This document shows positions 40,572 through 59,858 of a stretch of 64,000 nt of DNA, one piece after another. The translations under genes were made by a program, and so were the position numbers. Position 1 is the first letter of the stretch. Each line of letters starts with the position of its first letter. The notes below the pieces were generated by a model that saw only the letters and a program-made list of their open reading frames with translations, was not told the DNA's origin and searched no databases. Source of the stretch: Methylomusa anaerophila (GTDB lineage Bacteria; Bacillota; Negativicutes; Sporomusales; Sporomusaceae); NCBI RefSeq assembly GCF_003966895.1, contig NZ_AP018449.1, positions 1,422,001 through 1,486,000 on the forward strand. The letters run 5' to 3'.

Positions 40572-40648
40572 GACTCCGTAGCTCAGCTGGATAGAGCGTT
40601 TGACTACGAATCAAAAGGTCGCAGGTTCGAATCCTGCCGGGGTCGCCA
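40572..40648 (+). tRNA. tRNA-Arg (anticodon ACG), probable island attachment site
   Basis: 77 nt. Acceptor GACTCCG/CGGGGTC, anticodon arm TTTGA-CTACGAA-TCAAA, T-loop TTCGAAT, encoded CCA. Its last 49 nt recur at 59810-59858 with 43 identical bases in a row. Confidence 0.96.
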
Positions 40649-40657
40649 TAGATATTT

Positions 40658-40692
40658 CAAAGGTTTTACGATACTTTCGTAAAGCCTTTTTT
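40658..40692 (+). terminator. Terminator after tRNA-Arg
   Basis: AAAGGTTTTACGA / TTCGTAAAGCCTTT stem followed by TTTT. Confidence 0.8.
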
Positions 40693-40882
40693 GTCGTTTT
40701 TATAGCAATTTGACAACAACCGTGACAACAACGCGGCCGAATTGCTTTTTGTACATTTTCATTGCAGTGGTGTTTCATGGTCGGTCGGGGCAGCCGGAAA
40801 GGAAGAATTGAGCCATAAGGCGAACTTACCAGCGCGATTAACCAGATGTGTAATTGTGTCGAAAGGATGGGGTCCCGAAGAA

Positions 40883-41053
40883 ATGATGCTGAAAACTGTG
40901 TACGGTCCGCCGCCGAAGGACGAGGAACGGATTGAGGATTGTGAGTTTACGAAGAAAGTGCTATACAAGAGGAAAAGATTACGAAAGAAATACCTGACAA
41001 ACAGCAGTCGTAAAATGGCATTGGTGATTCAGAAACTACCGGATAATTTGTGA
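40883..41053 (+). CDS. Doubtful small hypothetical protein
   Basis: 56 aa from ATG 40883, very basic toward the end (KKVLYKRKRLRKKYL). No good ribosome site and no family. The only support is the terminator just downstream (41057-41088). It could be a fragment left by island turnover. Confidence 0.2.
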   Translation: MMLKTVYGPPPKDEERIEDCEFTKKVLYKRKRLRKKYLTNSSRKMALVIQKLPDNL

Positions 41054-41056
41054 TTT

Positions 41057-41088
41057 AAAAACAGCGTGTCAAGCGGCACGCTGTTTTT
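41057..41088. terminator. Bidirectional terminator between 41053 and the SDR gene
   Basis: AAACAGCGTG / CACGCTGTTT stem with A and T tracts on either side, placed between convergent reading frames. Confidence 0.8.
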
Positions 41089-41102: not shown

Positions 41103-41939
41103 TTAAAAATCGGTTTTAGGTGAAATATATTTGTTTTGTTCGAGTTCTCTGGTTAAAAATCCGATTTTTTCCAAAGCGCGCTGGTACGCATCGCTGCCTA
41201 AAAACAACCGCACTGGAGGGTTGGGGGATTCAACCAGTTCGATGAACACATCGGCTGCTTTATCCGGGTCTCCGAGCTGTTTGCCGTCAAACGATACGAA
41301 ACGATTGCATGCTTCATGAACGTCTTTATAATCGTCAATCTTATTTGCTGCGAGAACGAGAGAATCCTTTTTGTTAAATTGAGTTCTAAATCCACCGGGT
41401 GCTACTACGGTTACTTTAATTCCCAGAGATTTTACGTCATCGGCGAGTACTTCCGATAATCCCATAATGGAATATTTGGTTGCGGCATATATACTCCAGC
41501 CTGTATGCGGGGCAAAGCCGGCAATGGAAGAAATATTGATGATATGGCCTGATTTTTGCTTCCGCATAACGGGTAACACACTCTGGATTACGTGGATCGG
41601 ACCAAATACGTTTACATTAAAGCTGGAGAGTATCTCACTATCCGATAACTCTTCTACTGCACCGCCAATTCCATAACCGGCATTATTCAGTACAACATCA
41701 ACAGTTCCAAAAGTTTGCTGTGTTTCATTTATGGATTGGGTAATAGACTGGTGACTGGTAAGATCAACCTGCAGCGGTAAAAATTGATCTTTGGCCACAT
41801 CTCCGACCGCCTGTTTTAGTTCTTCCAAATTGCGTGATGTTGCGGCAACTTTATAGCCATTCGTGATTAGTTTTTTTACCAGGGCAAGTCCTAACCCTTT
41901 TGATGCTCCGGTGACATACCATACTTTTTTACTTTCCAT
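41103..41939 (-). CDS. Short-chain dehydrogenase/reductase (classical SDR)
   Basis: 278 aa. Cofactor motif TGASKGLGLAL, NNAG motif (VVLNNAGYG), catalytic Ser in NISSIAGF and YAATK (Tyr and Lys). It is an NAD(P)-dependent oxidoreductase of unknown substrate. It reads away from the AraC gene with the lipoprotein gene between them. SDRs of this type are often controlled by a neighbouring AraC_N regulator, as the layout suggests here. Confidence 0.88.
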   Translation of the reverse strand: MESKKVWYVTGASKGLGLALVKKLITNGYKVAATSRNLEELKQAVGDVAKDQFLPLQVDLTSHQSITQSINETQQTFGTVDVVLNNAGYGIGGAVEELSDSEILSSFNVNVFGPIHVIQSVLPVMRKQKSGHIINISSIAGFAPHTGWSIYAATKYSIMGLSEVLADDVKSLGIKVTVVAPGGFRTQFNKKDSLVLAANKIDDYKDVHEACNRFVSFDGKQLGDPDKAADVFIELVESPNPPVRLFLGSDAYQRALEKIGFLTRELEQNKYISPKTDF

Positions 41940-42009
41940 CTGTATCAGCTCCAGTTCATAGAATTAATAAACATCAGATTGGTACTTGTGTGAGCAGTCT
42001 GTTTTGTAA

Positions 42010-42441
42010 TCATGGCTGAGACTTCTCACGGTACAATACCATTCCCGCATGGTATAGAATTCCGTCCCGGAATTCACCATCGGCGCTAAAGCCAGTATCA
42101 TCCACATAATCAATGTGATTACCCTTGATCGTGTAGCTGCCGGTATAGGCGCTTTTTTTAGTGCCACGGGCTTCATCGTAGCGGCCGTTAGGCAGAAGTT
42201 CCTGACGAACGGAACCGTCTTTGGTAACCCACATTCCAATATACGATGGCTGGGTGTTTGCTTGTTTTTCCATTTTTCCCACTTCCCCTATATTAGAGTT
42301 ACTTCCGGTAGATTTCATAGTGCTTTCTGAAGATGCTTGTGATGGCTTATCTACTGAGCAGCCCTGTAAAACGAAAAAGCACAATAACAAACTGGTAAAT
42401 AATAAGAAAAACCTGATTTTTTCATAAATGTTTTTTATCAC
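42010..42441 (-). CDS. Atu4866-like domain lipoprotein
   Basis: 143 aa. The signal peptide ends with lipobox VLQG-C (Cys near 28), then a Ser-rich linker. A domain follows with GMWVTKDGSVRQELLPNGRYDEARG and GNHIDYVDDTGFSADGEFRDGILYHAGMVLYRE, matching the small Atu4866 family of unknown function. It is probably anchored on the outer face of a membrane. Same strand as the SDR gene, 70 bp upstream of it, and divergent from araC. Confidence 0.75.
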   Translation of the reverse strand: MIKNIYEKIRFFLLFTSLLLCFFVLQGCSVDKPSQASSESTMKSTGSNSNIGEVGKMEKQANTQPSYIGMWVTKDGSVRQELLPNGRYDEARGTKKSAYTGSYTIKGNHIDYVDDTGFSADGEFRDGILYHAGMVLYREKSQP

Positions 42442-42598
42442 ACCTTGCTGTCCTCCCTTGTTTGATAGTAGTTGTTACAACGTCATTATGCATCAAAAGT
42501 CATGACAGGAGGTAATCCGATTTTAGAAAATGATTGCCTGATTCTCCAAACGATATTAAAATATAAATAATTATTTGGGTAACGGCGGGGGAAATGTT

Positions 42599-43516
42599 GT
42601 GAAAAAAGAAGTACAGAACGATATTGTGATAATGCAGCAACAAAAAGAACTGGCGCAGCTTATAGAAGCTTTTACCGGGGAAGACGGGATGCATCCTACA
42701 GCGATTCCGGCATTACGTTTGCTGCGGGCTTCACAAAAATCACAGCCGATATATTCTGTTCACACCCCGGTTCTGTGTATTGTGGCCCAGGGAAGAAAAC
42801 TGGTGGTGCTGGCTCAGGAAAGTTATTACTATGATCCTTCCCAGTATCTTGTCATTTCGGTGGATCTGCCAATTTCAGGGCAGGTTCTGGAAGCAAGTCC
42901 GCAATGTCCTCACCTATGTATGCTTTTGGATTTTCATCCGGATCAGATTTTTGACATTCTGAAAGAAGCGGACCCGTCATGGCGCAAAAAAGGCGACTCA
43001 AAAAGAGGGCTTTTTGTCAGTAATTCGAATGCTTCACTTCTGGATGCCGCATTACGACTTCTCCGGCTCCTGGACACACCCAGTGATATTCCCATCCTGG
43101 CTCCCTTAATCATTCGGGAAATTCTGTATAGAATTCTGCAAGGCGAGCAGGGAGACACTGTGAAACAAATAGCGATAGTGAGTAGTCATGTATACTATAT
43201 CGCGGAAGTCATTCGCTTGATAAAACAGGATTTTGCCAAGCCTCTGGAGATTGACAAGCTGGCCTTATCCGTAAATATGGGAATATCATCACTATATCAG
43301 CATTTTAAAACGGTCACGGCAATGAGCCCTTTGCAATTTCAAAAGCAGTTGCGGCTTCATGAGGCCCGGCGCCTGCTGCTGACGGGAGTAGCGGATGCGG
43401 CAAATGCCGGATTTCAGGTTGGTTATGAGAGTCCGTCCCAGTTTAGCCGCGAATATGCACGCATGTTTGGTTTGCCTCCCATCAGTGATATGAAACGTTT
43501 GCGCGATTTAGGGTGA
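42599..43516 (+). CDS. AraC family transcriptional regulator
   Basis: 305 aa. The N-terminal cupin-like AraC_N domain (PIYSVHTPVLCIVAQGRKLVVLAQESYYYDPSQYLVISVDLPI) is followed by two helix-turn-helix motifs (LSVNMGISSLYQHFKTVTAMSPLQFQKQLRL and FQVGYESPSQFSREYARMFG). It likely controls the divergent SDR/lipoprotein genes. GTG 42599 is chosen for GGCGGGGGA upstream. Confidence 0.88.
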   Translation: MKKEVQNDIVIMQQQKELAQLIEAFTGEDGMHPTAIPALRLLRASQKSQPIYSVHTPVLCIVAQGRKLVVLAQESYYYDPSQYLVISVDLPISGQVLEASPQCPHLCMLLDFHPDQIFDILKEADPSWRKKGDSKRGLFVSNSNASLLDAALRLLRLLDTPSDIPILAPLIIREILYRILQGEQGDTVKQIAIVSSHVYYIAEVIRLIKQDFAKPLEIDKLALSVNMGISSLYQHFKTVTAMSPLQFQKQLRLHEARRLLLTGVADAANAGFQVGYESPSQFSREYARMFGLPPISDMKRLRDLG

Positions 43517-43656
43517 AATACAAAATGTTTTAGTGATACCTTCATTCAGTAAGGCTGGAGAATTAGACAATTATTTTCCAAAATAAGATTACCGCTCCTG
43601 ACTAATTTTCATGCATAATTGCATTGAGTTAATTAAGTTAGGGGATGAGGGTATTT

Positions 43657-44538
43657 ATGCCGCAGCTTTCTCGGTCTAAAACTACTTTATATTTGACATT
43701 TTTAGTGTTCGTTTGGGGCATTAACTGGCCGTTAAGCAAATATGCACTGAATTATATCTCGCCGCTATTATTTGCAGGGTTGCGTACCTTATTCGGGGGT
43801 CTAATATTACTTGGCTTTGCCCTAAGAAGGCTGGAGTTACTCCGGCTGAAAAAAACCTGGAGGATGTATCTTATCTCATCGTTTTTGAATATTATTCTGT
43901 TTTATGGTCTTCAAACTGTTGGATTGCAATATATGCCTGCCGGGTTATTTTCAGCGATTGTATTTCTTCAGCCTGTGTTGCTCGGAGTGCTTTCCTGGTT
44001 GTGGCTGGGAGAAGCCATGTATTTTTTGAAAGCGGTGGGATTAGTGCTGGGCTTTGTGGGCGTTGCTTTTATCAGCAGCGGAGGGCTGAGCGGGGATATT
44101 TCTTTGCACGGCATATTGTTTGCTATTGGCACAGCTGCCAGTTGGGCGTTGGGAACTGTATATATTAAAAAAATTGCAATGGATGTGGATATCCTCTGGC
44201 TGACTGCCGCACAGCTTACGACCGGCGGACTGATTATGCTAATTTGCGGATTCCTGTTTGAAGATTGGTCCGGCGTCATTTGGAACCGAATATTTATTTA
44301 TGATATCGCGTTTATCTCTATTTTCGTTATTGCTCTGGGCTGGTTGGTTTACTTTGTTTTGATTAACACTGGGGAAGCAAGTAAAATAGCATCTTACACG
44401 TTTCTTATACCGTTGGTTTCTGTCAGTAGTAGCGTTCTTTTTCTTGATGAGCGAGTGAGTATCAATTTAGCAGCAGGATTATTGCTAATCGTATTGAGTA
44501 TTGTGCTAGTGAATTATAAAAAAGTATCCGGCGTGTAG
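43657..44538 (+). CDS. EamA family (DMT) transporter
   Basis: 293 aa, ten predicted membrane helices in two EamA repeats (FLVFVWGINWPLSKYALNYI and GILFAIGTAASWALGTVYIK). It is a metabolite or drug exporter of unknown substrate. ATG 43657 is preferred for GAGGG upstream; ATG 43645 is an alternative that overlaps its own ribosome site. Confidence 0.85.
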   Translation: MPQLSRSKTTLYLTFLVFVWGINWPLSKYALNYISPLLFAGLRTLFGGLILLGFALRRLELLRLKKTWRMYLISSFLNIILFYGLQTVGLQYMPAGLFSAIVFLQPVLLGVLSWLWLGEAMYFLKAVGLVLGFVGVAFISSGGLSGDISLHGILFAIGTAASWALGTVYIKKIAMDVDILWLTAAQLTTGGLIMLICGFLFEDWSGVIWNRIFIYDIAFISIFVIALGWLVYFVLINTGEASKIASYTFLIPLVSVSSSVLFLDERVSINLAAGLLLIVLSIVLVNYKKVSGV

Positions 44539-44873: not shown

Positions 44874-45527
44874 TTGAGTAAGCGTTTTCATAAAGCTTTT
44901 AGAGATCCAAATTTGGATGAAGTCTATTGTTTACACCAAGTTAAGGTTGAAATGATTGATTTTGCCTATGCGTCTTATCGAAGGATGCTTGAAAGATCCA
45001 CATTACGTGTTACCAGTATAACGGATATACTACGTGAGAAAGAGCAACTTGTCGTACTAGAAAATATCTTAGACGAGTGCAGTGTCCACGGCGAGTTAAA
45101 TGACTTTTTTGGTCACAGTTGGTCGGTACTGGGGCTTGACAAGATGCGTGCAAATATGGAACAAAATTTTACTTTGAAAGTTGCTAGATTGTCAGAGATA
45201 CGTGGTTTCAAGATCCAACGGTTTGGCTGGATACTATCTATTCTTTTTGGTTTATCAGGAGCTGTAAACTTAGCACAAAATTTCATAGCAATTTTACAAC
45301 AACGCAGAAGACGCTTGGTACCGTCAGTCTTGACATTTTTGAACGCCGGGTATTCTGTGAGTGTAGATATTGAGAGCAGTTTCAGTGGTGTCTGCTCCGC
45401 CTGCAGGTATTCCAAAGAGCGCCATTTTCTGCGATGGCAACAAAACCGGCAGTTGGAAATTATAAAAAATATTGGGAAAGCGTGTAATACAGACAAGACT
45501 CCAACGTATTACCTTTATGATAAGTAG
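44874..45527 (+). CDS. Hypothetical protein, possible remnant, one membrane helix
   Basis: 217 aa with a TTG start and no clear ribosome site. The N-terminal two-thirds look like a helical soluble protein (REKEQLVVLENILDEC...). A hydrophobic segment FGWILSILFGLSGAVNLAQNFIAIL lies near residue 125. After that the sequence turns basic and Cys-rich and may have slipped out of its original frame. No family is recognised. The surroundings suggest decay. Confidence 0.35.
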   Translation: MSKRFHKAFRDPNLDEVYCLHQVKVEMIDFAYASYRRMLERSTLRVTSITDILREKEQLVVLENILDECSVHGELNDFFGHSWSVLGLDKMRANMEQNFTLKVARLSEIRGFKIQRFGWILSILFGLSGAVNLAQNFIAILQQRRRRLVPSVLTFLNAGYSVSVDIESSFSGVCSACRYSKERHFLRWQQNRQLEIIKNIGKACNTDKTPTYYLYDK

Positions 45528-45543: not shown

Positions 45544-45969
45544 TTGACGGAGTTTAGTCCTACGAAAGGCGGTGGTTACCATTTATATGGCGCCATGCGC
45601 AACAATATCCTGGATGAGTTAATCGCCGATTACATAGGCATCGTGGCGGCGGGACACTATGAGGCCGGCTGGTTTTTACGTTTTACCGGACTGGAGAATT
45701 ATCCGCTCTACCGGGACGGCGGCCGGCTGGAAATTTACCGGGGCAATCCGTCGCTTTCCGACGAAGCTTTCCGTGTTTTGCAGACTCTTGTGAAAAGAGC
45801 GGCGGAAAATCTGGCGCGATTTGACCGGGAAAACAGAATGCATTTGCACAAGCCGGCCGGGCAAACGGCGCTGCTGGCGGCGCTGACCCGCCTGACACTG
45901 GAGGAACTGGCCGGTGAAGAGGCTGGGATTTATCTGGCGCGGTCTTTAAGGCTTAAAAAAAATTTCTAA
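45544..45969 (+). pseudogene. C-terminal fragment of an unidentified protein
   Basis: 141 aa. Starts abruptly at TTG without a ribosome site, with SPTKGGGYHLYGAMRNNILDELIADYIGI, which reads like the middle of a larger enzyme. The rest (GWFLRFTGLENYPLYRDGGRLEIYRG, AFRVLQTLVKRAAENL) is well-formed and GC-rich, unlike the preceding gene. I take it as a 5'-truncated gene; the parent family is not identified. Confidence 0.45.
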
Positions 45970-46093
45970 AATTGTGTGTATCGTGGTGTAATGAAAATGC
46001 GTTTGGCACGTATTAACAAATAGTTAGACAAAGAGGACGAGCTTTTTATTATAAGTATTTTGCGGAATATACCCCCATGAGGAGATGGTTGTG

Positions 46094-47440
46094 GTGAAAC
46101 CTTCCATATACAATTTTATCTGGCCGGCAGAACAACAGGACAAAGTAATTGTTTTTAACAGCATGACTACCGCCTTGATCGAACTGGACAAGGACTGCGC
46201 GGCAGTCTTGAATAAACCCGGCTTTGCCCTTGAAGAATTGTCTTTTGGTGACAGGCTGCTTGTCGCAGGCTTGAAAGAAGGCGGCTTCGTGCTGGATGAT
46301 GAAATCGACGAATTGCAAGTTCTGAAGTTCAATTATAACCGGCAAAAATATGACCCTGGCAGGATGGGCCTTACCATTGCCCCGACTATGCTGTGCAATT
46401 TTGCCTGCACCTATTGCTTCGAGCAACCCGGTGAGGGCGACAGGCGTGACGGCGGCCATAGTATAATGCCTGAACCGGTCCGGCAGGAGTTAGTTGACTT
46501 TGTCGCCAGGGCTGCCAAGAATTTAAAAAGCCTACAGGTCATATGGTACGGAGGCGAACCACTTTTAGCCCAGGATGTTATTGTTGAGCTGTCGGAAAAA
46601 TTTATTAGCCTGGCTGCCGAAAATAACATTGCTTACTCGGCTTATATGGTTACGAACGGGTATCTGGCTGACGAAAATCGCTGGACCGTTCAAAAGTTAA
46701 AAGAAAACAGAATCAGCACTATCCAGGTCACTCTGGATGGTCCGCCGGAGGTCCACAACCGGAGGCGGATGCTTAAGTCCGGCCGGGGTTCCACCTTCGA
46801 GCGAATCCTGAACAACATTAAATTGCTTTTAAGCCAGGGGCTGGCAGTTCACCTGCGCATCAACGTGGACCGGTCCAATATGGAAAACGCGGAGGAACTG
46901 CTCGATATCCTGGAAGCAGAAAACTTAAAGGATATCCAGAATATATATCTCGGACAAGTTCATGCGGACACGGCAGGCTGCAAGTCTGTGGAAAGCTCAT
47001 GCGCCACCACGGAAGAATTTACCCGTTTTAGCTGCGCCTTTCACAGGACTCTGGCCCACAGGGGCTTTAAGGCGGGCCGCTATCCCCGTTCCGCGGTCAG
47101 CTGTTCGGCCAATTATCTGAACGCCTTTGTAATCGACCCGGACGGTGATATGTATAAGTGCTGGCATGAAGTCGGCAATAAGCCGCTTGCTGTCGGCAAT
47201 ATCGCCGGATTTGACAAACCCCGGGACAGACAGCAGCGCATGCGGGAAATCCGCTGGCTGACCTGGGAGCCCTTTGCCTATGCCGGCTGCCTTTCCTGCA
47301 AGCTGGTGCCTGTCTGTATGGGCGGATGCAGCTATCGGGCGATGCATGCCGGTGACAACCAACCGGATTGTTTGGAGTGGAAGTACGGCCTGGAGGATTA
47401 TATCAAATTGCGCTGCCGCCCGACAGAAATGAACCAATAA
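46094..47440 (+). CDS. Radical SAM/SPASM peptide maturase for an NHLP-leader RiPP
   Basis: 448 aa. The radical SAM motif CNFACTYC lies near residues 101-108, followed by a (beta/alpha) barrel with VIWYGGEPLLA and VTLDGPPEVHNRRR. The C-terminal SPASM domain supplies many cysteines (CSANYLNAFVIDPDGDMYKCW, CLSCKLVPVCMGGC, PDC) for two auxiliary 4Fe-4S clusters. Proteins like this modify Nif11/NHLP-type precursors, for example by thioether or carbon-carbon cross-links. It lies directly upstream of the precursor gene and is presumably the first gene of the operon. GTG 46094 is chosen 8 bp after GAGGAGA; ATG 46085 overlaps that site. Confidence 0.88.
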   Translation: MKPSIYNFIWPAEQQDKVIVFNSMTTALIELDKDCAAVLNKPGFALEELSFGDRLLVAGLKEGGFVLDDEIDELQVLKFNYNRQKYDPGRMGLTIAPTMLCNFACTYCFEQPGEGDRRDGGHSIMPEPVRQELVDFVARAAKNLKSLQVIWYGGEPLLAQDVIVELSEKFISLAAENNIAYSAYMVTNGYLADENRWTVQKLKENRISTIQVTLDGPPEVHNRRRMLKSGRGSTFERILNNIKLLLSQGLAVHLRINVDRSNMENAEELLDILEAENLKDIQNIYLGQVHADTAGCKSVESSCATTEEFTRFSCAFHRTLAHRGFKAGRYPRSAVSCSANYLNAFVIDPDGDMYKCWHEVGNKPLAVGNIAGFDKPRDRQQRMREIRWLTWEPFAYAGCLSCKLVPVCMGGCSYRAMHAGDNQPDCLEWKYGLEDYIKLRCRPTEMNQ

Positions 47441-47507: not shown

Positions 47508-47786
47508 ATGAGTCAGGAAAATCAAAATGCTTTATTTGAGAAAATTGTTAAGAAAGCCTGGGAAAACGATAATTTCAAAAAGTCATTGATAGCTGATCCT
47601 AAAGCAGCTATAGAGGCCGAATTCGGCGTCAAGGTTCCTGCCGGTATTGAACTCAAAGTTGTTGAACAAACGGCTAAACTGAGGTATATCGTTATGCCCG
47701 AGAAGGCAGGAACGCTCTCGGAAGAGCAGCTTGATAACGTAGCAGGCGGTGGATGCACTGGATACTTCTGCCCGATCTACTGGTAA
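47508..47786 (+). CDS. RiPP precursor with nitrile-hydratase-like (NHLP) leader peptide
   Basis: 92 aa. Residues 1-80 are an NHLP leader: EKIVKKAWENDNFKKSLIAD, FGVKVPAGIELKVVEQT, RYIVMPEK. It ends LSEEQLDNVAGGG, a double-glycine protease site. The remaining core is CTGYFCPIYW, 10 residues (11 if cut one Gly earlier), with two Cys, two Tyr, one Phe and one Trp. A very strong site AAAGGAGGTGAG precedes ATG. The gene sits between its maturase and exporters, with a hairpin downstream (47870-47911) that could give the precursor transcript excess. The product is likely a small cross-linked peptide; its activity is unknown. Confidence 0.9.
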   Translation: MSQENQNALFEKIVKKAWENDNFKKSLIADPKAAIEAEFGVKVPAGIELKVVEQTAKLRYIVMPEKAGTLSEEQLDNVAGGGCTGYFCPIYW

Positions 47787-47911: not shown

Positions 47912-48064
47912 TTCTTGCATGCGCAATGACAGCTTTGGCAAGGCTGCCGGCGGGGAAAGCGGTTATATTGCGCTTTGATCCGGTTAGGAGGACGCCGGAT
48001 TGGAGCATTTTAAGGGCTATACGCTTGATTGCTCCTATAGGCTGTGTGGGCAGGGGGGAGTGCG

Positions 48065-49237: not shown

Positions 49238-49256
49238 GCGAGAAGGGGCTGGAGCG

Positions 49257-50228: not shown

Positions 50229-50230
50229 CC

Positions 50231-52390
50231 ATGATGAAACCACGACGTATTAAAACTCCGACGGTTTTACAAATGGAAGCGGTGGAATGCGGCGCTGCCT
50301 CCCTAGGCATAATTCTGGCCTACTATGGGCTGTTCCTTCCCCTGGAGCGGCTGCGGCTGGAATGCGGCGTGTCCCGCGACGGCAGCAAGGCCAGCAATAT
50401 GATGAGAGCCGCCCGGCGCCTGGGACTGGAGGGCGCGGGCTTCCGTGACAGCGCAGCAGGACTGCGGGACCAGGAGCTGCCCTTGATCATTCACTGGGAT
50501 TTCAACCATTTTCTCGTATTGGAAGGTTTCAAAGACAACCTTGTGTATCTGAATGATCCGTGCGCCGGTCACCGGACGGTGACCTGGGACGAATTTACCG
50601 CCTCCTTCACCGGTGTCGCGCTCCGGCTGAAGCCCGGCCCGGATTTTCAAAAAGGCGGCTCGACTCCGGGGATTATCCCGGTTCTAGCCAGACGGTTGCG
50701 TGGTCAGAACAAAGTGCTGGTTTTTGCCTTGCTGACCGGTGCCGGCCTGATCATTCCCGGACTGGCCATTCCGGTGTTCAGTCAGGTGTTTTTGGATGAT
50801 ATTCTGTCCTTGAAACATGCGGACTGGCTGTTTAATTTGCTGCTGGCCATGGGGTTCGCGGCGGTGCTGCAGGGGGCGCTGACCTGGCTGCGTTCCTGGT
50901 GCCTCACCCGTTGGCAGGGCGCGCTTACCGTCGGGGAGTCCAGCCGCTTTTTCTGGCATCTGCTCCGGCTGCCGATGGAGTTCTTTCAACAGCGCTACGG
51001 TGGAGAAGTAGCTTCCCGGGTACAGTTCAATGAAGAGGTGGCAGCGGTGTTAACCGGTCAGGCCGCCACGGCGGTTCTGGATGTGTTGGTAGCGCTGTTT
51101 TATCTAAATCTCTTGTTTCAGTACGATGTGTCCTTAACCCTTATCGGCATTGTGTTCAGCTTGCTGAATGTGAGCATTCTCTATTTGATGTTCCGCTGGA
51201 TGACCGAGCAGCAGATGAAAATCCAGCAGGATAGGGGCAAAGCCTATGGTACGGCTATCGCCGGTATTCAGATCATCGAAACCTTGAAGGCCAGTGGCAA
51301 CGAGGGCGATTTTTTCAATAAGTGGGCGGGCTATCAGAGCAAATTACTGGAAACGCAGCAAAAAATCGAATTATCCGCACAGACGCTCATGCTTGCGCCG
51401 GCTTTTCTGGCCGGTTTGAATACCGCCGTCATTATGGCGGTGGGTGGCTTTCAAATCATGGACGGACTAATGACCGCTGGTATTTTTGTGGCGTTTCAGC
51501 ATTTGATGGGTAAATTTCAGGAACCGCTGACGAATCTGCTCAATCTAAGCCAGGCGCTGCAGACGACTCAGATGCAGATGCAGCGCCTTGATGATGTATT
51601 CCGTTATCAGACTGACCAGGCCAACTATCCGGCGGAGCCGCCGCCGGCCATCGACCGTACCAAACTGTCCGGCCGCGTGGAACTGCGGCAGGTAACCTTT
51701 GGCTATAGCCGGCTGGAAGCGCCGCTGATTGAAGATTTCACTCTAACCATCGAGCCGGGGCGCTGGGTGGCACTGGTCGGCGGATCGGGCAGCGGCAAGT
51801 CCACGGTGGCCAAATTGGTAGGCGGTCTGTATCAGCCCTGGACAGGGGAAGTCATGTTTGACGGCTTGCCGCGCCGCCGCATTCCCCGGGAGGTCATTGT
51901 TAACTCGGTAGCGGCGGTAGATCAGGAGATCATCTTGTTCGCCGGTACGGTGGCGGAGAATATTTCCCTGTTCGATACCACCCTGGCACGCTTCGAAATT
52001 ACGCGCGCGGCCAAAGACGCCGCCATTCACGGCGATATTACCGCACTGCAGGACGGCTACGACGCCAAGGTGGCGGAGGGAGGACGGAATTTCAGCGGCG
52101 GACAGCGGCAGCGACTGGAAATTGCCAGAGCCCTGGCCGGAAGCCCGTCCGTGCTTGTGCTTGACGAAGCGACCAGTGCTTTGGACCCCTTGACGGAACA
52201 AGCGGTTATTAACAATATCCGCCGCCGCGGCTGCGCCTGTCTGGTGGTTGCTCACCGTTTGAGCACCATCAGGGATTGTGATGAAATTATTGTTATGCAG
52301 CATGGCAAAGTCGTACAGCGTGGCAGGCATGAGGAAATGATGGCAACCGAGGGGCCGTACCGGCAACTGGTTGCCCATGATGCCGGGTGA
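50231..52390 (+). CDS. NHLM bacteriocin export ABC transporter with C39 peptidase domain
   Basis: About 719 aa. Residues 1-140 form a C39 peptidase with catalytic Cys in VECGAASLG (near 20), His in HWDFNHFLVLEGF and Asp in YLNDPCAG. The permease follows (about 160-450). The ATPase has Walker A GGSGSGKST near 515, signature NFSGGQRQRLEIARAL and Walker B VLVLDEATSAL. It should cut the leader after the Gly-Gly site and carry the product across the inner membrane. ATG 50231 overlaps no ribosome site; TTG 50225 is less likely. Confidence 0.92.
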   Translation: MMKPRRIKTPTVLQMEAVECGAASLGIILAYYGLFLPLERLRLECGVSRDGSKASNMMRAARRLGLEGAGFRDSAAGLRDQELPLIIHWDFNHFLVLEGFKDNLVYLNDPCAGHRTVTWDEFTASFTGVALRLKPGPDFQKGGSTPGIIPVLARRLRGQNKVLVFALLTGAGLIIPGLAIPVFSQVFLDDILSLKHADWLFNLLLAMGFAAVLQGALTWLRSWCLTRWQGALTVGESSRFFWHLLRLPMEFFQQRYGGEVASRVQFNEEVAAVLTGQAATAVLDVLVALFYLNLLFQYDVSLTLIGIVFSLLNVSILYLMFRWMTEQQMKIQQDRGKAYGTAIAGIQIIETLKASGNEGDFFNKWAGYQSKLLETQQKIELSAQTLMLAPAFLAGLNTAVIMAVGGFQIMDGLMTAGIFVAFQHLMGKFQEPLTNLLNLSQALQTTQMQMQRLDDVFRYQTDQANYPAEPPPAIDRTKLSGRVELRQVTFGYSRLEAPLIEDFTLTIEPGRWVALVGGSGSGKSTVAKLVGGLYQPWTGEVMFDGLPRRRIPREVIVNSVAAVDQEIILFAGTVAENISLFDTTLARFEITRAAKDAAIHGDITALQDGYDAKVAEGGRNFSGGQRQRLEIARALAGSPSVLVLDEATSALDPLTEQAVINNIRRRGCACLVVAHRLSTIRDCDEIIVMQHGKVVQRGRHEEMMATEGPYRQLVAHDAG

Positions 52391-52411
52391 TGTACCGGGG
52401 AGGAGGTATAT

Positions 52412-55351
52412 ATGGGAGCGGACATGACAGGAAACCGGCAGCTTATACTAAGTAACAGCCAGGTTGCATGGCTGGATGATCAGGACAAGGTATGGCGGGT
52501 GGACGAAGGAACGGTGGACATCTATGCCGTCACCGCTGCGGAAAGCCACCATTACCGGCAGCTTTTTCTAGCCCAGGCCGGGGAGGGGCGGCTGCTGTTC
52601 GGCTTGTCCCCGGAAACAGCCGGCGGTATCCGGCTGATGGCCATCGCTGTTAAGGCGGCGAAGCTTTGTGCGATGCCGCGGGCGGATTTGCTGCAAACAG
52701 CCCGGGAAGCCGGCGAATGTAAGCCGGAGGAGATATTGCCCGCCATTGAAGCATGGTTGGAAGCGCTGCTGGCCGGACCGGAACCACCGGCCGGTCCGAC
52801 AGCTTTTTCCCTGCTGTCGCCGGGAGAAACCCTGTCTTTGCCGGCGGGGCAGGCGGTCAGAACAGGCCGGGACATAACCTGGGCGCGTGCCGTGTCGGGA
52901 GAAATAAGCCTCGGCGCCAGGCCGGAGGATGGCCTGGCGCCGGATATGGCGATTCCGCTGGTTAAGGAGACCTGGCTGGTGGCGAACAGCGAGGCCGTAA
53001 TACAGGGGCTGACCACGGCAGATATTTTCGTTCCGGCGCAAATGGAGAATCCACAGCGGTTCTGGCAGCCCTTGGACCGCTGTCAGCAATTGTTTGCGAC
53101 CTTGATGGCCGGCTGGTTTACTGGTGAAGACCGGCGCGACGGCGAACGGCTGGCGGCAAGAGGGCGGCTGAAGGAGCAGTTGCTGTATGGCGCCGCCAAT
53201 CATCTGCTGCGTACCGATATGCCGGATTTGCCTCCGGCGGCGGTGCCAGACGGCCCGTATTCACCGTTATTAATGGTGGTGAGAGCGGCGGCCGGCCATC
53301 TGGGCATTGCGGAGCGGCAGGTGCGCCTGCCGGCCGGAGCGGATCCGCTGAGGCAGGATCCGGCCCTGCTCCGCAGTGTGGCCCGGCTGGCCGGAATACA
53401 GGTGCGTCAGGTATGCCTGGAACCGGGCTGGCAGCAGCGGGACAATGGCCCGCTCATCGCTTTCCGGGGACCGGACCGGCATCTGGTGACGTTATTGCCG
53501 GTGTCGCCGCGCAAATACCGCCTGTTTGATCCCGGCCAGGCGGAGATGGTAATGATCGAAGACGGAACAGGCCTCGGGATTGAGCCGCTTGCGTATATCC
53601 TATATGCCGGGTTGCCCGGCAGAGCGCGAAGTTTGCCCGACTTGCTGAATTTCATGCTCGGGAAGTGCTGGTCCGGCGATGGCTGGAGTATTGTTCTGAT
53701 CAGTATGCTGGCCGGTCTTATTCCGGTGCTGACCCCGTTTATTACGCAGACGATTTTTGAACATATCATTCCGATTAACGACCGCCAGGGCCTGGTGATG
53801 GTGGTGCAGGTCATGCTGGTAGCCGCTTTTGCCACGGCCGGTGTTTCTTTTGCCCGGAGTGTCGCTTTTCTGCGGTTGAAAAGCCGGTCGCAGTTGGTTG
53901 CCGAGGCTGCTTTGTGGCTGCGGCTGCTGGCTTTGCCTGCCGGCTTTTTCCGGCGTTATGAGGCCGGCGATTTAGCTCAGCGCATGCATAGTGTCACGCA
54001 AATATTCACGCTGCTCTCCAATTCAACCGTGTCGGCCCTGTTCAATGCGCTTTTTTCCTTTTGGAGCCTGCTGGCCATGCTGTATTACAGTTGGAAGCTG
54101 ACCTTTATGGCCGGGGCGGTGTGGATCGGTTATCTTGGTGTGGCTATTTTTCTCCAATGGCGCATGGTGGCGGCCAAGCGCCGGATGATGGAAGCAATGG
54201 GCGAAACGGCCGGTCAAGTGCTCCAGATCTTTAACGGCTTAAGCAAGTTCCGTATTCAGGGGGCGGAAGCCCAGGCGTTTTATTTATGGTCCCGGAAATT
54301 CGGCGAACAATGGAAATGGAACAGGGAGTTTCGCTGGAAGGCCAATTGGCTGGAACTCGTTAATACGCTGCAGCCGTTGCTGCTGACCATGCTGATTTTC
54401 TGGCTGACAATGGACTGGCTGGAACAAGGGGCCGGGACGCAGACACCGTTCATCACCTTGCCGCAATTTATGGCCTTCAATGCGGCACTGACCGGCTTTA
54501 GCGCCACCATAACGGGACTGATGGTATTGAGCGTGAATTTGCTTGAAATCGTGCCCCAGTTGGAACGGCTGCGTCCCATCCTGGAAGCTGAACCCGAAGT
54601 AACCGAGGATAAGGCCGAGGTCGGCGCGTTAAGCGGCAGGGTCGAAATCAGCAACGTGTCTTTTCGTTACGGTCCTGATCTGCCGCCGATATTACGTAAT
54701 GTGTCCATGAATATTCGCCCGGGGCAATTTGCCGCCATTGTGGGGTCTTCCGGCAGCGGCAAATCTACCTTGCTGCGCCTCCTGCTGGGGTTTGAGAAAC
54801 CGGAGACAGGGTCCATTTACTATGACGGACAGGAATTGGCGGAGGTGAATATTACCTCCGTACGGACACAAATGGGGGTAGTGCTGCAAAACGGGCAGTT
54901 GATGGCCGGTGATATCCTCACCAATATTATCGGCTCGCTGCCGCTGACCATTGATGACGCATGGGAAGCGGCGGAAATGGTGGGATTGGCTGAGGATATT
55001 CGCGCTATGCCCATGGGTATGCATACCCTGATCAGCGAGGGGGCTTCCAATATTTCCGGCGGACAGCGGCAACGGATTCTAATCGCCCGTTCCGTTGTCC
55101 ACCGTCCGCGAATTATTGTGTTCGATGAGGCTACCAGCGCGCTCGACAACAAGACCCAGCGAATGGTGACCGAAAGCCTGGACCGGATGCACGCCACCCG
55201 CATCGTGGTGGCGCACCGGCTGAGCACGGTAATGAATGCCGATGTTATCTATGTATTGGATAAGGGCGAGATCGTGGAGAGCGGGACTTATGCCGAATTG
55301 ATGGCGGAAAAAGGCTTATTTGCCACGCTGGCTTACCGGCAGATGGCGTAG
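52412..55351 (+). CDS. NHLM bacteriocin system ABC transporter, ATPase/permease without active peptidase
   Basis: 979 aa. A long N-terminal region (about 1-400) contains a divergent domain and a degenerate peptidase-like part (LAGIQVRQVCLEPGW, FRGPDRHLVTLLP). It is followed by six membrane helices and an ATPase with Walker A GSSGSGKST near 780, signature NISGGQRQRILIARS and Walker B IIVFDEATSAL. This is the second NHLM ABC protein that always accompanies the first; its separate task is not established. Start ATG after GGGGAGGAGGT. Confidence 0.9.
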   Translation: MGADMTGNRQLILSNSQVAWLDDQDKVWRVDEGTVDIYAVTAAESHHYRQLFLAQAGEGRLLFGLSPETAGGIRLMAIAVKAAKLCAMPRADLLQTAREAGECKPEEILPAIEAWLEALLAGPEPPAGPTAFSLLSPGETLSLPAGQAVRTGRDITWARAVSGEISLGARPEDGLAPDMAIPLVKETWLVANSEAVIQGLTTADIFVPAQMENPQRFWQPLDRCQQLFATLMAGWFTGEDRRDGERLAARGRLKEQLLYGAANHLLRTDMPDLPPAAVPDGPYSPLLMVVRAAAGHLGIAERQVRLPAGADPLRQDPALLRSVARLAGIQVRQVCLEPGWQQRDNGPLIAFRGPDRHLVTLLPVSPRKYRLFDPGQAEMVMIEDGTGLGIEPLAYILYAGLPGRARSLPDLLNFMLGKCWSGDGWSIVLISMLAGLIPVLTPFITQTIFEHIIPINDRQGLVMVVQVMLVAAFATAGVSFARSVAFLRLKSRSQLVAEAALWLRLLALPAGFFRRYEAGDLAQRMHSVTQIFTLLSNSTVSALFNALFSFWSLLAMLYYSWKLTFMAGAVWIGYLGVAIFLQWRMVAAKRRMMEAMGETAGQVLQIFNGLSKFRIQGAEAQAFYLWSRKFGEQWKWNREFRWKANWLELVNTLQPLLLTMLIFWLTMDWLEQGAGTQTPFITLPQFMAFNAALTGFSATITGLMVLSVNLLEIVPQLERLRPILEAEPEVTEDKAEVGALSGRVEISNVSFRYGPDLPPILRNVSMNIRPGQFAAIVGSSGSGKSTLLRLLLGFEKPETGSIYYDGQELAEVNITSVRTQMGVVLQNGQLMAGDILTNIIGSLPLTIDDAWEAAEMVGLAEDIRAMPMGMHTLISEGASNISGGQRQRILIARSVVHRPRIIVFDEATSALDNKTQRMVTESLDRMHATRIVVAHRLSTVMNADVIYVLDKGEIVESGTYAELMAEKGLFATLAYRQMA

Positions 55352-55381: not shown

Positions 55382-55414
55382 AAAAAGGAACTTCCCTGAT
55401 GGAGTTCCTTTTTG
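55382..55414. terminator. Terminator between the RiPP operon and the regulator gene
   Basis: AAAAAGGAACT / AGTTCCTTTTT stem, symmetrical A/T tracts, placed between convergent genes. Confidence 0.9.
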
Positions 55415-55445
55415 GTTGCGGATTTATACTCCGCCGTTATAAAAA

Positions 55446-58400
55446 CTAAAGTATGGTATGTCCGTGGTAGCTCAGGGCGGTACAGCGCCGCCGCAGTTCC
55501 GTGGCCTTGGCCCTTTCCCCTGCGGCCCGGTAACTTGCCAGCAGGGTTTGGGCTGCCGCCAGAAAGCTGTCCTCGTAGGCCAGCCTGGTACTTTCAGCCC
55601 ACAGTGTCTCCATATCATCCAGATACCGGCCGGTATAACAGTCAACTACTTTTTGGGCAGTTGCGGGTTCGGGCCGTTGCCGGAATTCTTCCGTTGCCTG
55701 CCGGAACAGGTCGAGATCGCAGATGATTTCTTCCCTATTCAGGCGATATAAGCCGTTTTCATGCAAAACGGGATTTGCTGCTCCCAGGCTTTCGAAAGCT
55801 CGCCGGATTTCACCCCGGCGGGTGTGGAACAGGTTGACGGCATCAGCCTCGCTATTTTCCCATATGTCTCGGCAGACTTGCTCCCGGGTAACTCCCTTGC
55901 GGTGTTCCATTAAGTAGGCCAGAAGTTCCCGCGCCTTTTGCGTGCGGATTTTAACCCGGTTTTTCCTGTTGTGGGCGGGGGCGATATAGAAAGCGCCCAG
56001 AGTATGCATATAAACCCGTTCTATTGTATATCCGCCATAGGACAGCATTTCCTGAGTAAACTCGGGATTGATGCCGCAATCTGCGGCCAGCTTGAGGACC
56101 GGGGCGAAGAGGGGCTTGAAGCGGATGTAATAGCGGTGATCGTATTGCTGGGAAAGCGCCAAAAAGCGCTGGGTGTATTCTTTGGCTGTGACTATATTCC
56201 CTTCCCGCAGGTAAATCGCTGCCAGCCTTCCATAAGCGACAGTAGGGTAAGCATAGCTGCCGATGTCTTCACCAATCCGGATGGCTTCGTGGAGAAAGTG
56301 CTTGCATTGCTCGCTGTCCAGATGCAGTGTGTCCAAGGCATTGGCCATACGCCCATAGGCCATAATTTGGAAAAAGGGGGTTGTCCCTTTTAAGAGAGTA
56401 AGAATTTCGCTGATAATGTGACCGGCCTTTTCCGGCTGTGTCAGCAGTCCGGCGCAAAGCGCCCATATTTTTATGAATAGGTAATGATCGCGGGTGCTGC
56501 GGTTCAGAACGGCATATTCCTTCGCCAGGCTGAGATACCGGTCAATAATGGAGAAATCGAAGGGCAGGCCGCAGTAACATTTCAAAAGCTCTTCCGAATG
56601 GAGGATCTCCACACGAGAGAGGTAGTGGATACTATAATCTTCGTAAAGTTCCAGTTGTTTCAGACGCGTCAGTTCCGTGTCCAGCAAGGGCAGCACCTTT
56701 TCTTCCCGTCCGGTAACCTGATAAGCCTTGGCCGCATAGGCGCCTACGCTGTGGCGCAGCAGCCAGTCCCGTTCTTCCTGGGGGATGGAGAGGGATTTTT
56801 CATAAGCTTTCAGACAATTTTTGAAATCGCCACAGTAAAAATAAATGGCGGTTAAATAGCGTTCAAACCATGCCTTCACTCCGACCGCTCCCGTGCTCAG
56901 ACATTGATCCATCATAGTCATGGTCAGTTCCATTGCCTCGGAGAGCCGGGAGGTCATGGTAAGATTGTAGATTTTTTCGATGACCACAGCATACCAATCC
57001 TGCATGGGGGCGTCCGGCGGCAACGGCAGCAGGGAGTCAAGGCAGCGGGTGCTTTCCTCGAACGAGACCTTGTTGCGCAGTACTCTGGCTATATGGGTCA
57101 TAGCGTACCGGTAGAGGGTTTGATCATCGTCGCTTAAATGGGGGATTGCAGCGCGTAAATATTTTTCCGCCTGATGAAAATCTCCCAGATTAGATAAAAT
57201 CATGCCTTTGGCCAGCATGACCCGGGGAGATAAATCGGCGGCGCGTTCTTCCAGAAAGTCAAGGTATTTTTTCAGGCTGCGGATGCGGTTCCGGGCAAAC
57301 GGCAGGGCCAAGATGGCGCCGATGCAATTCTGAATCGCCCTGCCGTCCTCCAAAAGCAAGGCATACTCGGCGGCCTGAGCGTAATCTCCTTCTTCGTAAG
57401 AAAGAGCCAGGGCTCGCTTTAGGGTTTCCTTGTACAGTCCCTCGCTAATTTGCCGCAGAAAAGCCCGGAATAAGACGTGGTGGCGATAAGCCGAGGCAGA
57501 ATGGCGTACTGTGAAGATGTTGTGCTGGACAAGGTTCTCCAATATTTCCCGGCTATTGCCAATGCCAAGGAGGGTATCGCAGAAGGCGGGCTCCAGCACA
57601 GGCAGACCGGAGGCGGCCTTCAAAAAAAACTGGACCTCTGCGGGCAACTGCAGGATGATCTCATTTAAGAGATAGCGGTAGAGGTCTTGTTCGGCGTAGA
57701 GTCTCGATACAGGAAGGGTCCGGCTGCCTTTTGCGGCCAGACGGTAGGATTGGAGGGCTAACGTCCAGCCTTCGGTGGCCTCGTAAATATCTTCATCAAA
57801 AAAACCTAAAAGATGCTCAGCCTCTTCCCGGCTGAAACATAAATCCTGTTTGTTAAATTCAGCCATTCCGCCAGTCAGCTTCAACGGGAGAAGCCCATCC
57901 CACGGGGCATGGCGGCTGGCTATGATCAGGGAGAGGGTGGAAGGGCAAGCCACTGCCCACGCAGTAAGCAAGGCGGTTATGGTATGGTTATGAATCACAT
58001 GAACATCATCCATCAGGATCGACAATCTTCGCTGCCCGATTGCTTCCAACAGGGCGGGCAACAGGAGGGCTGTGAAGCGCTCGCTTAGGGCAAAAGGGAT
58101 ATAGTCTGCGGCGTAAAACTCAAAGCTTCCCAGCTTCTTCCGGATGGACGACTCCAGATGGCCCAGAAAATACGGTATATCACTGTCCCTGTCATCCAGG
58201 GAAAGCCAGACCACATCATTCCGGTTCTGGGCGTATTGCAGCATCAGGATGGTTTTTCCATATCCCGCCCCGGCATGAATATAGGTGAGTTTGCTGCCGG
58301 GAGGGCAAATATTCTCCACCAGGCGGGAACGGAAAATGATTCCGTCGCCTGGGGCTAAAAGCGGAAGGTCCTTCTTTTGCTTCAGGTAACCGCCTGATTT

Positions 58401-58559
58401 AACTCTGGCATCGTCCGGTTTGGTTGCTGTTTTAGGAATCAGCCACGTCCAGCCATGGCGCTCCGCACCTTTGATCCTGCCTTTCTGGCAGAGGGTGTGG
58501 ACCCGGCGCTGAGAGATTCCCCACTTTGCTGCGGCTTCTTTGGGAGTGATATATTGCAC
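55446..58559 (-). CDS. STAND-type transcriptional regulator (MalT-like) with BTAD domain
   Basis: 1037 aa. The N-terminal 45 residues are an excisionase/MerR-like DNA-binding fold (TPKEAAAKWGISQRRVHTLCQKGRIKGAERHG). A NTPase domain follows with P-loop AGAGYGKT (residues 96-103) and Walker B LSILMDDVHVI. The middle is helical TPR-like repeats (about 420-850). The C-terminus has an OmpR-like winged helix (KARELLAYLMEHRKGVTREQVCRDIWENSE) and a bacterial transcriptional activation domain. It probably senses a signal by its TPR region and activates the RiPP operon. GTG start after GGAGGAGGATAAAG. Convergent with the operon. Confidence 0.85.
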   Translation of the reverse strand: MQYITPKEAAAKWGISQRRVHTLCQKGRIKGAERHGWTWLIPKTATKPDDARVKSGGYLKQKKDLPLLAPGDGIIFRSRLVENICPPGSKLTYIHAGAGYGKTILMLQYAQNRNDVVWLSLDDRDSDIPYFLGHLESSIRKKLGSFEFYAADYIPFALSERFTALLLPALLEAIGQRRLSILMDDVHVIHNHTITALLTAWAVACPSTLSLIIASRHAPWDGLLPLKLTGGMAEFNKQDLCFSREEAEHLLGFFDEDIYEATEGWTLALQSYRLAAKGSRTLPVSRLYAEQDLYRYLLNEIILQLPAEVQFFLKAASGLPVLEPAFCDTLLGIGNSREILENLVQHNIFTVRHSASAYRHHVLFRAFLRQISEGLYKETLKRALALSYEEGDYAQAAEYALLLEDGRAIQNCIGAILALPFARNRIRSLKKYLDFLEERAADLSPRVMLAKGMILSNLGDFHQAEKYLRAAIPHLSDDDQTLYRYAMTHIARVLRNKVSFEESTRCLDSLLPLPPDAPMQDWYAVVIEKIYNLTMTSRLSEAMELTMTMMDQCLSTGAVGVKAWFERYLTAIYFYCGDFKNCLKAYEKSLSIPQEERDWLLRHSVGAYAAKAYQVTGREEKVLPLLDTELTRLKQLELYEDYSIHYLSRVEILHSEELLKCYCGLPFDFSIIDRYLSLAKEYAVLNRSTRDHYLFIKIWALCAGLLTQPEKAGHIISEILTLLKGTTPFFQIMAYGRMANALDTLHLDSEQCKHFLHEAIRIGEDIGSYAYPTVAYGRLAAIYLREGNIVTAKEYTQRFLALSQQYDHRYYIRFKPLFAPVLKLAADCGINPEFTQEMLSYGGYTIERVYMHTLGAFYIAPAHNRKNRVKIRTQKARELLAYLMEHRKGVTREQVCRDIWENSEADAVNLFHTRRGEIRRAFESLGAANPVLHENGLYRLNREEIICDLDLFRQATEEFRQRPEPATAQKVVDCYTGRYLDDMETLWAESTRLAYEDSFLAAAQTLLASYRAAGERAKATELRRRCTALSYHGHTIL

Positions 58560-58852
58560 CTTTATCCTCCTCCACGACCTGTGCGACCGTCTTCAATGCT
58601 AATTATTTTCTTTCATTATAAGCGAACTTTCGAACAATATCGAGCTGAACTTACAGAATGTGAGACAAATTTCCCCTTTTATGGCTTGCAAATGCATGAA
58701 TGAGTCGAACCATAGGATAAATTGTCGAAAATGGTGGCTGGCGGCAGTTTTGGTGGTAGGCGGCTTTCTATAATCAATATAGTGCAGTAAGGTTCTTTCT
58801 GTGGCAAAGACAGAAGGACAAGCCGGTGTATTGGTCGGGAGGCGGGTTATGG

Positions 58853-59413
58853 ATGACGACGGTCAGGCTGACGCAAATGGAGGAAGAGGCATGGAGTAAG
58901 TCGGATGATGAGCGGTTTTTTGGCGAAATCTACAGAGAGTACTTTCCACGGATATACAATTATGTCCTTTATCGCGTGAACAACCACCATGACGCAGATG
59001 ATTTGAGCAATGAGATCTTCGTCAAAATTTTTACCAGCCTGAACCGCTATCAGGCGGAAAAGGCTTCCCTGCCGGTATGGATCTTCAGTATAGCCCGCAA
59101 CTCGGTAATTGATCATTATCGACGAGGCCTGCAGCCAGCCACATCTTTAGATGTAATTTCCGACCTCTCCGATTCCCGGCCAGGGCCTGACGACACGGTG
59201 GCCTCCCGTGAGCTGTGGCAGCATTTGCGGGAAGCTTTGGCCTCTTTATCCCAACGGGAACGGGAAATTATTGCGCTTAAGTTCTGGAGCGGTTTTTCCA
59301 ACAGGGAGATTGCCGGAGTTATCGGCATCAGCGAAAGCAATACGGGCGTTACCCTGTTCCGGGCCATGCGGCGGCTTCGCCTGATTTTGGAAAGCCAGGG
59401 GGTTGAATATTGA
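58853..59413 (+). CDS. ECF-type sigma factor
   Basis: 186 aa. Region 2 (FFGEIYREYFPRIYNYVLYRVNNHHDADDLSNEIFVKIF, PVWIFSIARNSVIDHYRRG) and region 4 (LREALASLSQREREIIALKFWSGFSNREIAGVIGISESNTGVTLFRAMRRL) are typical of group 4 sigma factors. ATG 58853 follows GGGAGGCGGG; the upstream GTG is not supported. It overlaps the next gene by one base (TGATG), a sign of sigma/regulator pairing. It reads divergently from the STAND regulator and may drive part of the island. Confidence 0.9.
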   Translation: MTTVRLTQMEEEAWSKSDDERFFGEIYREYFPRIYNYVLYRVNNHHDADDLSNEIFVKIFTSLNRYQAEKASLPVWIFSIARNSVIDHYRRGLQPATSLDVISDLSDSRPGPDDTVASRELWQHLREALASLSQREREIIALKFWSGFSNREIAGVIGISESNTGVTLFRAMRRLRLILESQGVEY

Positions 59414-59784
59414 TGACGGAACGGACTAAGGCCGAACTGTACCTGACCTATCTGGACCGGATCCTGGCCGGGGAAAAAGATATCGAGCCGGTAGAGGACG
59501 GCGAGATAGCCGAGCTCATCAGGCTGGCCCAAACCATGATTGCTGCAGATTTCAGCAGTAAAAGCAAAATCAGGGAGATATTGCGAAAACAACTTCTGGG
59601 CAGGCTGTCGCCGGAAGATAAAGCCATCCTGGCTGTTATGGCTAACGACGGCAGGAAAGAAGGAGAACTGCTGGAAGAGGAGCTGAACTTTGTAACCGCC
59701 GCAGGGCAGGGAGTGGGAAACATTTGCCCCCGCTGTGGGGCAAATATGGGCTGGGTGCAAAGGAAATGCCCGTTCTGCCGATAA
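59413..59784 (+). CDS. Small zinc-ribbon protein, possible anti-sigma partner
   Basis: 123 aa, soluble, helical, ending in a zinc ribbon CPRCGANMGWVQRKCPFC. No membrane helix. Translational coupling to the sigma gene suggests it controls that sigma factor, although it is not a classical zinc anti-sigma (no HxxxCxxC motif). Function is inferred from position only. Confidence 0.6.
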   Translation: MTERTKAELYLTYLDRILAGEKDIEPVEDGEIAELIRLAQTMIAADFSSKSKIREILRKQLLGRLSPEDKAILAVMANDGRKEGELLEEELNFVTAAGQGVGNICPRCGANMGWVQRKCPFCR

Positions 59785-59809
59785 GTAATCCCGGGGGTTA
59801 TGCCTAGAC

Positions 59810-59858
59810 TTGACTACGAATCAAAAGGTCGCAGGTTCGAATCCTGCCGGGGCCGCCG
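59810..59858 (+). pseudogene. 3' fragment of tRNA-Arg(ACG), right attachment repeat
   Basis: Runs from the 5' side of the anticodon arm (TTGACTACGAATCAAAAGGT) through the T arm to GGGGCCGCC. It lacks the D arm, 5' acceptor strand and CCA. 43 nt are identical to 40600-40642. Confidence 0.85.

What the first reader, a model, noticed from the sequence alone, without database searches (positions are those of the whole stretch)
40600..59858. 19.2-kb genomic island bounded by a tRNA-Arg(ACG) duplication
A 43-nt exact direct repeat, offset by 19,210 bp, covers the tRNA 3' half from the anticodon arm, the usual crossover site of tyrosine recombinases. The interior is accessory and includes the whole RiPP cluster and its regulators. 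No integrase remains.
Basis: seen in the sequence. Interest (0 to 1): 0.75.

Follow-up and report, generated by a model that had tools for sequence, protein, structure and literature searches.

The report
Decayed tRNA-Arg island carrying peptide genes
A block of acquired genes, including a full set for making and exporting a small modified peptide, sits behind an arginine tRNA gene that mobile DNA of this bacterial class uses repeatedly as a landing site; the enzyme that inserted such DNA here has decayed to a fragment, so this is a solid but fairly ordinary worn-out genomic island.

Summary
A 43-nt exact direct repeat (40600-40642 and 59810-59852) copies the 3' part of an intact tRNA-Arg(ACG); it is the only exact repeat of 30 nt or more in the window. 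The island reading holds, with two corrections.

(1) An integrase does remain, as a scrap: its last 22 codons (40762-40827, minus strand) are 95% identical to a tyrosine integrase lying about 100 nt from tRNA-Arg(ACG) in relatives. All 12 sampled integrases at least 73% identical to it sit at that site. The left end beyond the tRNA is 98.9% identical over 175 bp to another genome's island end.

(2) The 19.2 kb is probably not one self-contained unit but part of a decayed composite or tandem array. The sequence beyond the right repeat resembles element left ends, and the SoFic gene just past it is 96.6% identical to one inside another genome's tRNA-Arg array. That genome carries the same export and regulatory cluster, in the same order, about 16 kb beyond its last att relic, at a different tRNA-Arg copy.

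The RNase P-tRNA-Arg site is occupied in three family members and vacant in four. No same-genus genome was available. New member of a known kind.

The parts
40206..40537 (+). RNase P RNA (class B), chromosomal neighbour upstream of the target tRNA
   Evidence: Rfam RF00011, 216 bits
40572..40648 (+). intact tRNA-Arg(ACG), the insertion target
   Evidence: ARAGORN, Rfam 70.5 bits
40600..40642 (+). left copy of the 43-nt repeat (att core; the core shared with intact relatives runs to 40648)
40649..40758 (.). element left end: terminator and GACAACAACCGTGACAACAA repeats (possible integrase arm sites, inferred)
   Evidence: 40649-40823 is 98.9% identical to L059 and L241, both from G011, 80-92% to most other element ends
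40759..40827 (-). 3' stub of the tyrosine integrase gene (last 22 codons and stop)
   Evidence: tblastn 95% over 22 aa to L066 residues 393-414, E=2e-8
40821..40937 (+). remnant of the element's YvrJ (holin-like) region, joined to the stub by a deletion
   Evidence: 85.6% DNA identity to L066 6156-6273; YvrJ by Pfam
41103..44538 (.). cargo block: short-chain dehydrogenase (-), Atu4866-domain lipoprotein (-), AraC regulator (+), EamA transporter (+)
   Evidence: Pfam
45336..45398 (-). second, more diverged integrase scrap around the catalytic-tyrosine motif
   Evidence: 57% over 21 aa, E=0.02; 83% over 48 nt; weak on its own
45445..45521 (+). conserved upstream (promoter) region of the RiPP operon
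   Evidence: 76.6% to the region upstream of HlyD1 in G001; 85% over 45466-45519 to L096/G317
45544..45969 (+). truncated 3' part of a DUF7005 gene, scar of an earlier biosynthetic cassette
   Evidence: Pfam PF22541 profile positions 247-360 of 361; 85.5% DNA identity to L096 5277-5518
46085..47440 (+). radical SAM/SPASM peptide maturase
   Evidence: best NCBIfam match TIGR04334 Clo7bot maturase, 438 bits, below its cut-off of 600
47508..47786 (+). NHLP-leader RiPP precursor ending VAGG-GCTGYFCPIYW
   Evidence: TIGR03793, 91 bits against cut-off 50.9; translation
48044..55351 (+). export module: HlyD-type adaptor, NHLM HlyD, C39 peptidase-ABC, NHLM ABC2
   Evidence: NCBIfam RND_mfp, TIGR03794, TIGR03796, TIGR03797, all above cut-off
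55446..58559 (-). MalT-like regulator (1037 aa)
   Evidence: NCBIfam MalT partial match, 134.9 bits, below its cut-off of 537; TPR and HTH_17; 80% to G001, 83% to G317
58826..59784 (+). ECF sigma factor and a 124-aa protein, conserved with the cluster in G001
   Evidence: Pfam for the sigma factor; 81% and 71% to G001; DNA homology to G001 ends at 59784
59810..59852 (+). right copy of the repeat: displaced, decayed 3' fragment of tRNA-Arg
59853..59894 (.). flank resembling a degenerate element left end (possible tandem junction)
   Evidence: 59810-59894 is 84-91% identical to element left ends, best L061 and L075; unlike the flank of the vacant tRNA-Arg in G317
60059..61236 (+). SoFic gene with its upstream region, outside the reported interval but cargo of a tRNA-Arg array in G001
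   Evidence: 91.8% DNA identity over 1179 bp to L071 5568-4390; 96.6% protein identity; PADLOC SoFic 395 bits

Best explanation
Bases 40600-59852 are part of a decayed, composite genomic island at tRNA-Arg(ACG). A tyrosine integrase of a lineage specific to this tRNA inserted an element whose att core is the 3' part of the tRNA, keeping the gene intact at the left and displacing a 3' fragment to the right (inferred from the signature and from intact relatives). The element's own genes (integrase, repressor, excisionase-like, replication, SSB, YvrJ) were then lost, leaving the left end, 22 codons of integrase and a piece of the YvrJ region (shown). What persists is cargo: an oxidoreductase/AraC/EamA block and an NHLP-type RiPP cluster whose precursor, maturase, exporter and regulators are all open reading frames. 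The right repeat is most likely a junction within a tandem array, because SoFic just beyond it is also array cargo (inferred). The island can no longer excise by its own integrase; loss by recombination between the 43-nt repeats, or mobilisation by a related integrase in trans, remains possible (not tested).
For: Repeat and tRNA. Left end 98.9% identical over 175 bp to L059 and L241 (both G011). Integrase stub. All 12 integrases at least 73% identical in 380 class genomes adjoin tRNA-Arg(ACG) or its att core, while 6 at 42-52% do not. Intact example: a 29.5-kb island in G011 between two exact 49-nt cores, integrase at one end, defence cargo. Orthologous RNase P-tRNA-Arg occupied in G006, G008, G011 and vacant in G001, G003, G004, G009. 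Same export and regulatory cluster in the same order in G001, about 16 kb past the last att relic of a tandem tRNA-Arg array, at the hexokinase-linked tRNA-Arg copy. SoFic 96.6% identical to one in that array. Horizontal signal: cluster proteins are mostly closer to G317, another family (75-90%), than to G001, same family (70-84%), although a conserved 428-aa protein beside the other tRNA-Arg copy gives 74% and 82%.
Against: No same-genus genome is held, so flank-to-flank comparison with an empty site was not possible. The conserved right arm found before five other array cores is absent before 59810, so the right repeat cannot be tied to this element. In G317 the cluster has no tRNA or att core on its 118-kb contig, so the cluster also moves, or is inherited, without this site. 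In G001 no att core was found distal to the cluster. The claim that the right repeat's 3' flank is element-derived rests on 42 nt at moderate identity; a native terminator of similar sequence is not excluded.
Confidence: 0.82

Rival explanations
1. One reading: one 19.2-kb island that arrived as a single unit, with 40600 and 59852 as its attL and attR, and later lost its integrase.
For: Exact repeat in the right orientation and configuration. Homology of the RiPP cluster to G001 stops 26 bp before the right core. The intact G011 island has the same layout: element genes by one core, then cargo, then the second core.
Against: No element right arm before 59810. The flank after it resembles element left ends. 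SoFic beyond it is array cargo elsewhere. The two integrase scraps differ in divergence (95% and 57%), which suggests more than one element.
Confidence: 0.3
2. Two unrelated histories: a small integrase element at tRNA-Arg decayed, and the RiPP cluster was inserted next to it later by another route, so the repeat does not mark how the cluster arrived.
For: G317 has the cluster without tRNA or att core. The window cluster lacks a right arm before the repeat. The cluster order is permuted between G317 and the window.
Against: In G001 the same cluster is also linked to a tRNA-Arg array, at a different tRNA copy; by chance this is unlikely.
Confidence: 0.2
3. The repeat is a plain segmental duplication of part of a tRNA gene, without an integrase.
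For: No intact integrase in the interval; a relic of the same kind lies at 1.79 Mb.
Against: Element left end, integrase stub, site preference of the lineage and intact relatives.
Confidence: 0.03

Closest known systems
tRNA-targeted genomic islands as defined by Islander (PMC4383910)
   Same: intact tRNA at one end, displaced 3' tRNA fragment in the same orientation, anticodon-side crossover class, size within 2-200 kb, tandem arrays known
   Different: no intact integrase gene, which Islander requires; a degraded displaced fragment; probably composite
Grounded (defective) prophages or degraded integrative elements (PMC6379469, abstract only)
   Same: integration remnant kept at the site while mobility genes decay
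   Different: the related elements carry int, XRE repressor, excisionase-like gene, replication gene, SSB and YvrJ; no structural genes were recognised in the one intact G011 island by the ORFs inspected, so phage origin is not shown
NHLP/NHLM RiPP clusters (Haft et al. 2010, PMC2887384)
   Same: NHLP-leader precursor with Gly-Gly, NHLM HlyD and two NHLM ABC transporters
   Different: radical SAM/SPASM maturase close to but below the Clo7bot cut-off; MalT-like regulator, sigma factor and 124-aa gene attached; located in a tRNA island

Membership tests
tRNA-targeted genomic island (Islander definition, PMC4383910) | intact tRNA plus displaced 3' fragment, same orientation, fragment downstream | tested here: met
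tRNA-targeted genomic island (Islander definition, PMC4383910) | integrase open reading frame inside | tested here: not met
   only a 22-codon stub and a weaker scrap; no PF00589 match in this interval. Hence filed as a decayed island, not an active one
tRNA-targeted genomic island (Islander definition, PMC4383910) | the integrase lineage uses this tRNA in intact relatives | tested here: met
   12 of 12 at tRNA-Arg(ACG) or its core
tRNA-targeted genomic island (Islander definition, PMC4383910) | accessory: absent from most relatives | tested here: met
tRNA-targeted genomic island (Islander definition, PMC4383910) | empty site with rejoined flanks in a close relative | tested here: inconclusive
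   vacant orthologous tRNA sites in four genomes of other genera, but flanks differ; no same-genus genome held
tRNA-targeted genomic island (Islander definition, PMC4383910) | excision and transfer | not testable with these tools
   needs wet-lab or read data
NHLP/NHLM RiPP export system | NHLP leader precursor with NHLM HlyD, ABC1 and ABC2 | tested here: met
   TIGR03793, 03794, 03796, 03797 above cut-off
Clo7bot radical SAM maturase (TIGR04334) | score above the equivalog cut-off | tested here: not met
   438 bits against 600

The most novel reading that the evidence does not exclude
An apparently undescribed tRNA-Arg(ACG)-specific integrase lineage builds tandem arrays of defence and RiPP cargo across several families of this class, with near-identical ends; a mobile RiPP export and regulation chassis travels in these arrays while its modifying enzymes are swapped behind it (PoyD-type in G001, Nif11/PoyD-related/DUF7005 in G317, radical SAM/SPASM plus NHLP here, with a DUF7005 scar).
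Probability: 0.4. Interest if true: 0.55.

Novelty: new member of a known kind. Interest (0 to 1): 0.38.

Why it matters
It ties a RiPP cluster to a recurrent landing site whose integrase lineage can be recognised by sequence, so the same tRNA can be used to find further RiPP and defence cargo in related genomes. It is also a clear case of an island that outlived its own integrase and is better read as a composite array than as one insertion.

Tried and rejected
Searching for the distal chromosomal end by synteny failed: glycogen synthase and a left-flank protein are only about 50% identical in the family and lie elsewhere. An IMG/VR contig (L241) at first suggested a phage attP between integrase and lysis genes; its first 6.7 kb are 100% identical to G011 and its other end carries the L063-type integrase, so it is two adjacent elements of a tandem array, and I dropped the attP reading. 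The third genomic core-like site at 1.79 Mb is a relic without a tRNA and was not explained. Paper searches for this element family found nothing specific.

Full report
What is there. The window lies at 1,422,001-1,486,000 of a complete 4.78-Mb genome. An intact tRNA-Arg(ACG) at 40572-40648 follows a class B RNase P RNA gene. The 43-nt repeat is exact, lies 19,210 bp away in the same orientation, and is the only exact repeat of 30 nt or more in the window. The right copy is not a tRNA gene, and its last bases have drifted.

Which element made it. The sequence just past the tRNA (40649-40823) is not ordinary tRNA flank. It occurs at up to 98.9% identity over 175 bp next to tRNA-Arg or its core in other genomes of the class, while in other genomes similarity stops at the tRNA end. 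The two 98.9% matches, L059 and L241, come from the same genome, G011: L241 is identical to its chromosome at another place. In intact copies a tyrosine integrase of about 415 aa runs towards the tRNA and ends about 100 nt from it. The window keeps its last 22 codons at 40762-40827 (95% identical to L066) and, fused to it by a deletion, 117 bp from the element's YvrJ region. A weaker integrase scrap lies at 45336-45398. Of 18 integrases found in 380 class genomes, the 12 that are at least 73% identical all adjoin tRNA-Arg(ACG) or its att core, and the 6 at 42-52% do not. This lineage therefore appears specific for this tRNA.

Intact relatives. In G011 a 29.5-kb island lies between two exact 49-nt cores. 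Next to one core are the integrase, a repressor and, further in, an amidase; then come an MFS transporter, a universal stress protein, an RmrA homologue and a Gabija GajA with a shortened GajB. G001 has a chain of three cores over 50 kb. Tandem arrays are thus usual at this site. A second, different integrase (L063) also uses it.

Occupied and vacant sites. At the orthologous RNase P-tRNA-Arg locus the left end is present in G006, G008 and G011, and absent in G001, G003, G004 and G009. In G001, G003 and G009 another tRNA gene follows at once; in G004 the next is about 140 nt away. No same-genus genome was held, so the two flanks could not be compared with a true empty site.

Cargo. The RiPP cluster has an NHLP-leader precursor (core GCTGYFCPIYW), a radical SAM/SPASM maturase and the NHLM export genes. 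A MalT-like regulator, an ECF sigma factor and a 124-aa gene follow; export and regulatory genes are conserved in the same order in G001, about 16 kb beyond its last core. G001's array is at the hexokinase-linked tRNA-Arg, the orthologue of this genome's other tRNA-Arg at 570 kb, not at RNase P. The same cargo is thus found near two different copies of the target tRNA. Cluster proteins are mostly closer to G317, a different family, than to G001, whereas a conserved 428-aa protein beside the 570-kb tRNA-Arg shows the reverse; this fits horizontal transfer.

Limits of the 19.2-kb unit. Before the right repeat there is no trace of the right arm that precedes five other array cores. After it, 59853-59894 continues like an element left end, unlike the flank of the vacant tRNA-Arg in G317. 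The next gene, SoFic, is 96.6% identical to one inside G001's array. I therefore favour a composite or tandem array whose true distal end lies beyond 61236 and was not located.

Verdict. A genuine, decayed tRNA-Arg genomic island; a new member of a known kind. Shown: the repeat, the element left end, the integrase stub, the site preference of the lineage, and patchy occupancy. Inferred: the order of insertions, the tandem nature of the right repeat, and present immobility.

Noticed in passing
window 45466-58825; L096 1-12942: The RiPP cluster in G317 is a cyclic permutation of the window's: the MalT-like gene precedes the operon there and follows it here, same orientations, with window 58825 abutting 45466 exactly in L096. 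Unexplained; a circular or tandem-duplication intermediate would fit.
   Followed up: partly
window 45544-48044; L198 15151-16563; L096 2296-5314: The biosynthetic genes behind a conserved export and regulation chassis differ: PoyD-type in G001, Nif11 precursor with a PoyD-related enzyme and DUF7005 in G317, radical SAM/SPASM plus NHLP in the window, which keeps a DUF7005 3' scar.
   Followed up: partly
L059 16250-16579 and L063 16755-17087 (G011): G011 has two full-length class B RNase P RNA genes, each next to a tRNA-Arg(ACG); G006, G008 and G009 also show two or more matches.
   Followed up: partly
window 44636-44690: Perfect 25-bp inverted repeat with a 5-nt loop between the EamA gene and the integrase scrap; possibly a terminator or an insertion scar.
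   Followed up: no
window 60051-60093: Inverted repeat AGTAAAAATTACTCACATTA / TAACGTGAGTAATTTTTACT just before SoFic, at the start of the stretch shared with G001; a possible operator or transfer boundary.
   Followed up: no
genome position 1,792,179 (L008 9180-9268): A third att-like relic of tRNA-Arg with an element-like terminator and no tRNA gene, 310 kb away in the same orientation.
   Followed up: partly
L071 1424-14142 (G001 array): The array segment holding SoFic also carries a Dsr1-like SIR2 gene and a Mokosh-like gene, so these tRNA-Arg arrays look like defence islands.
   Followed up: partly
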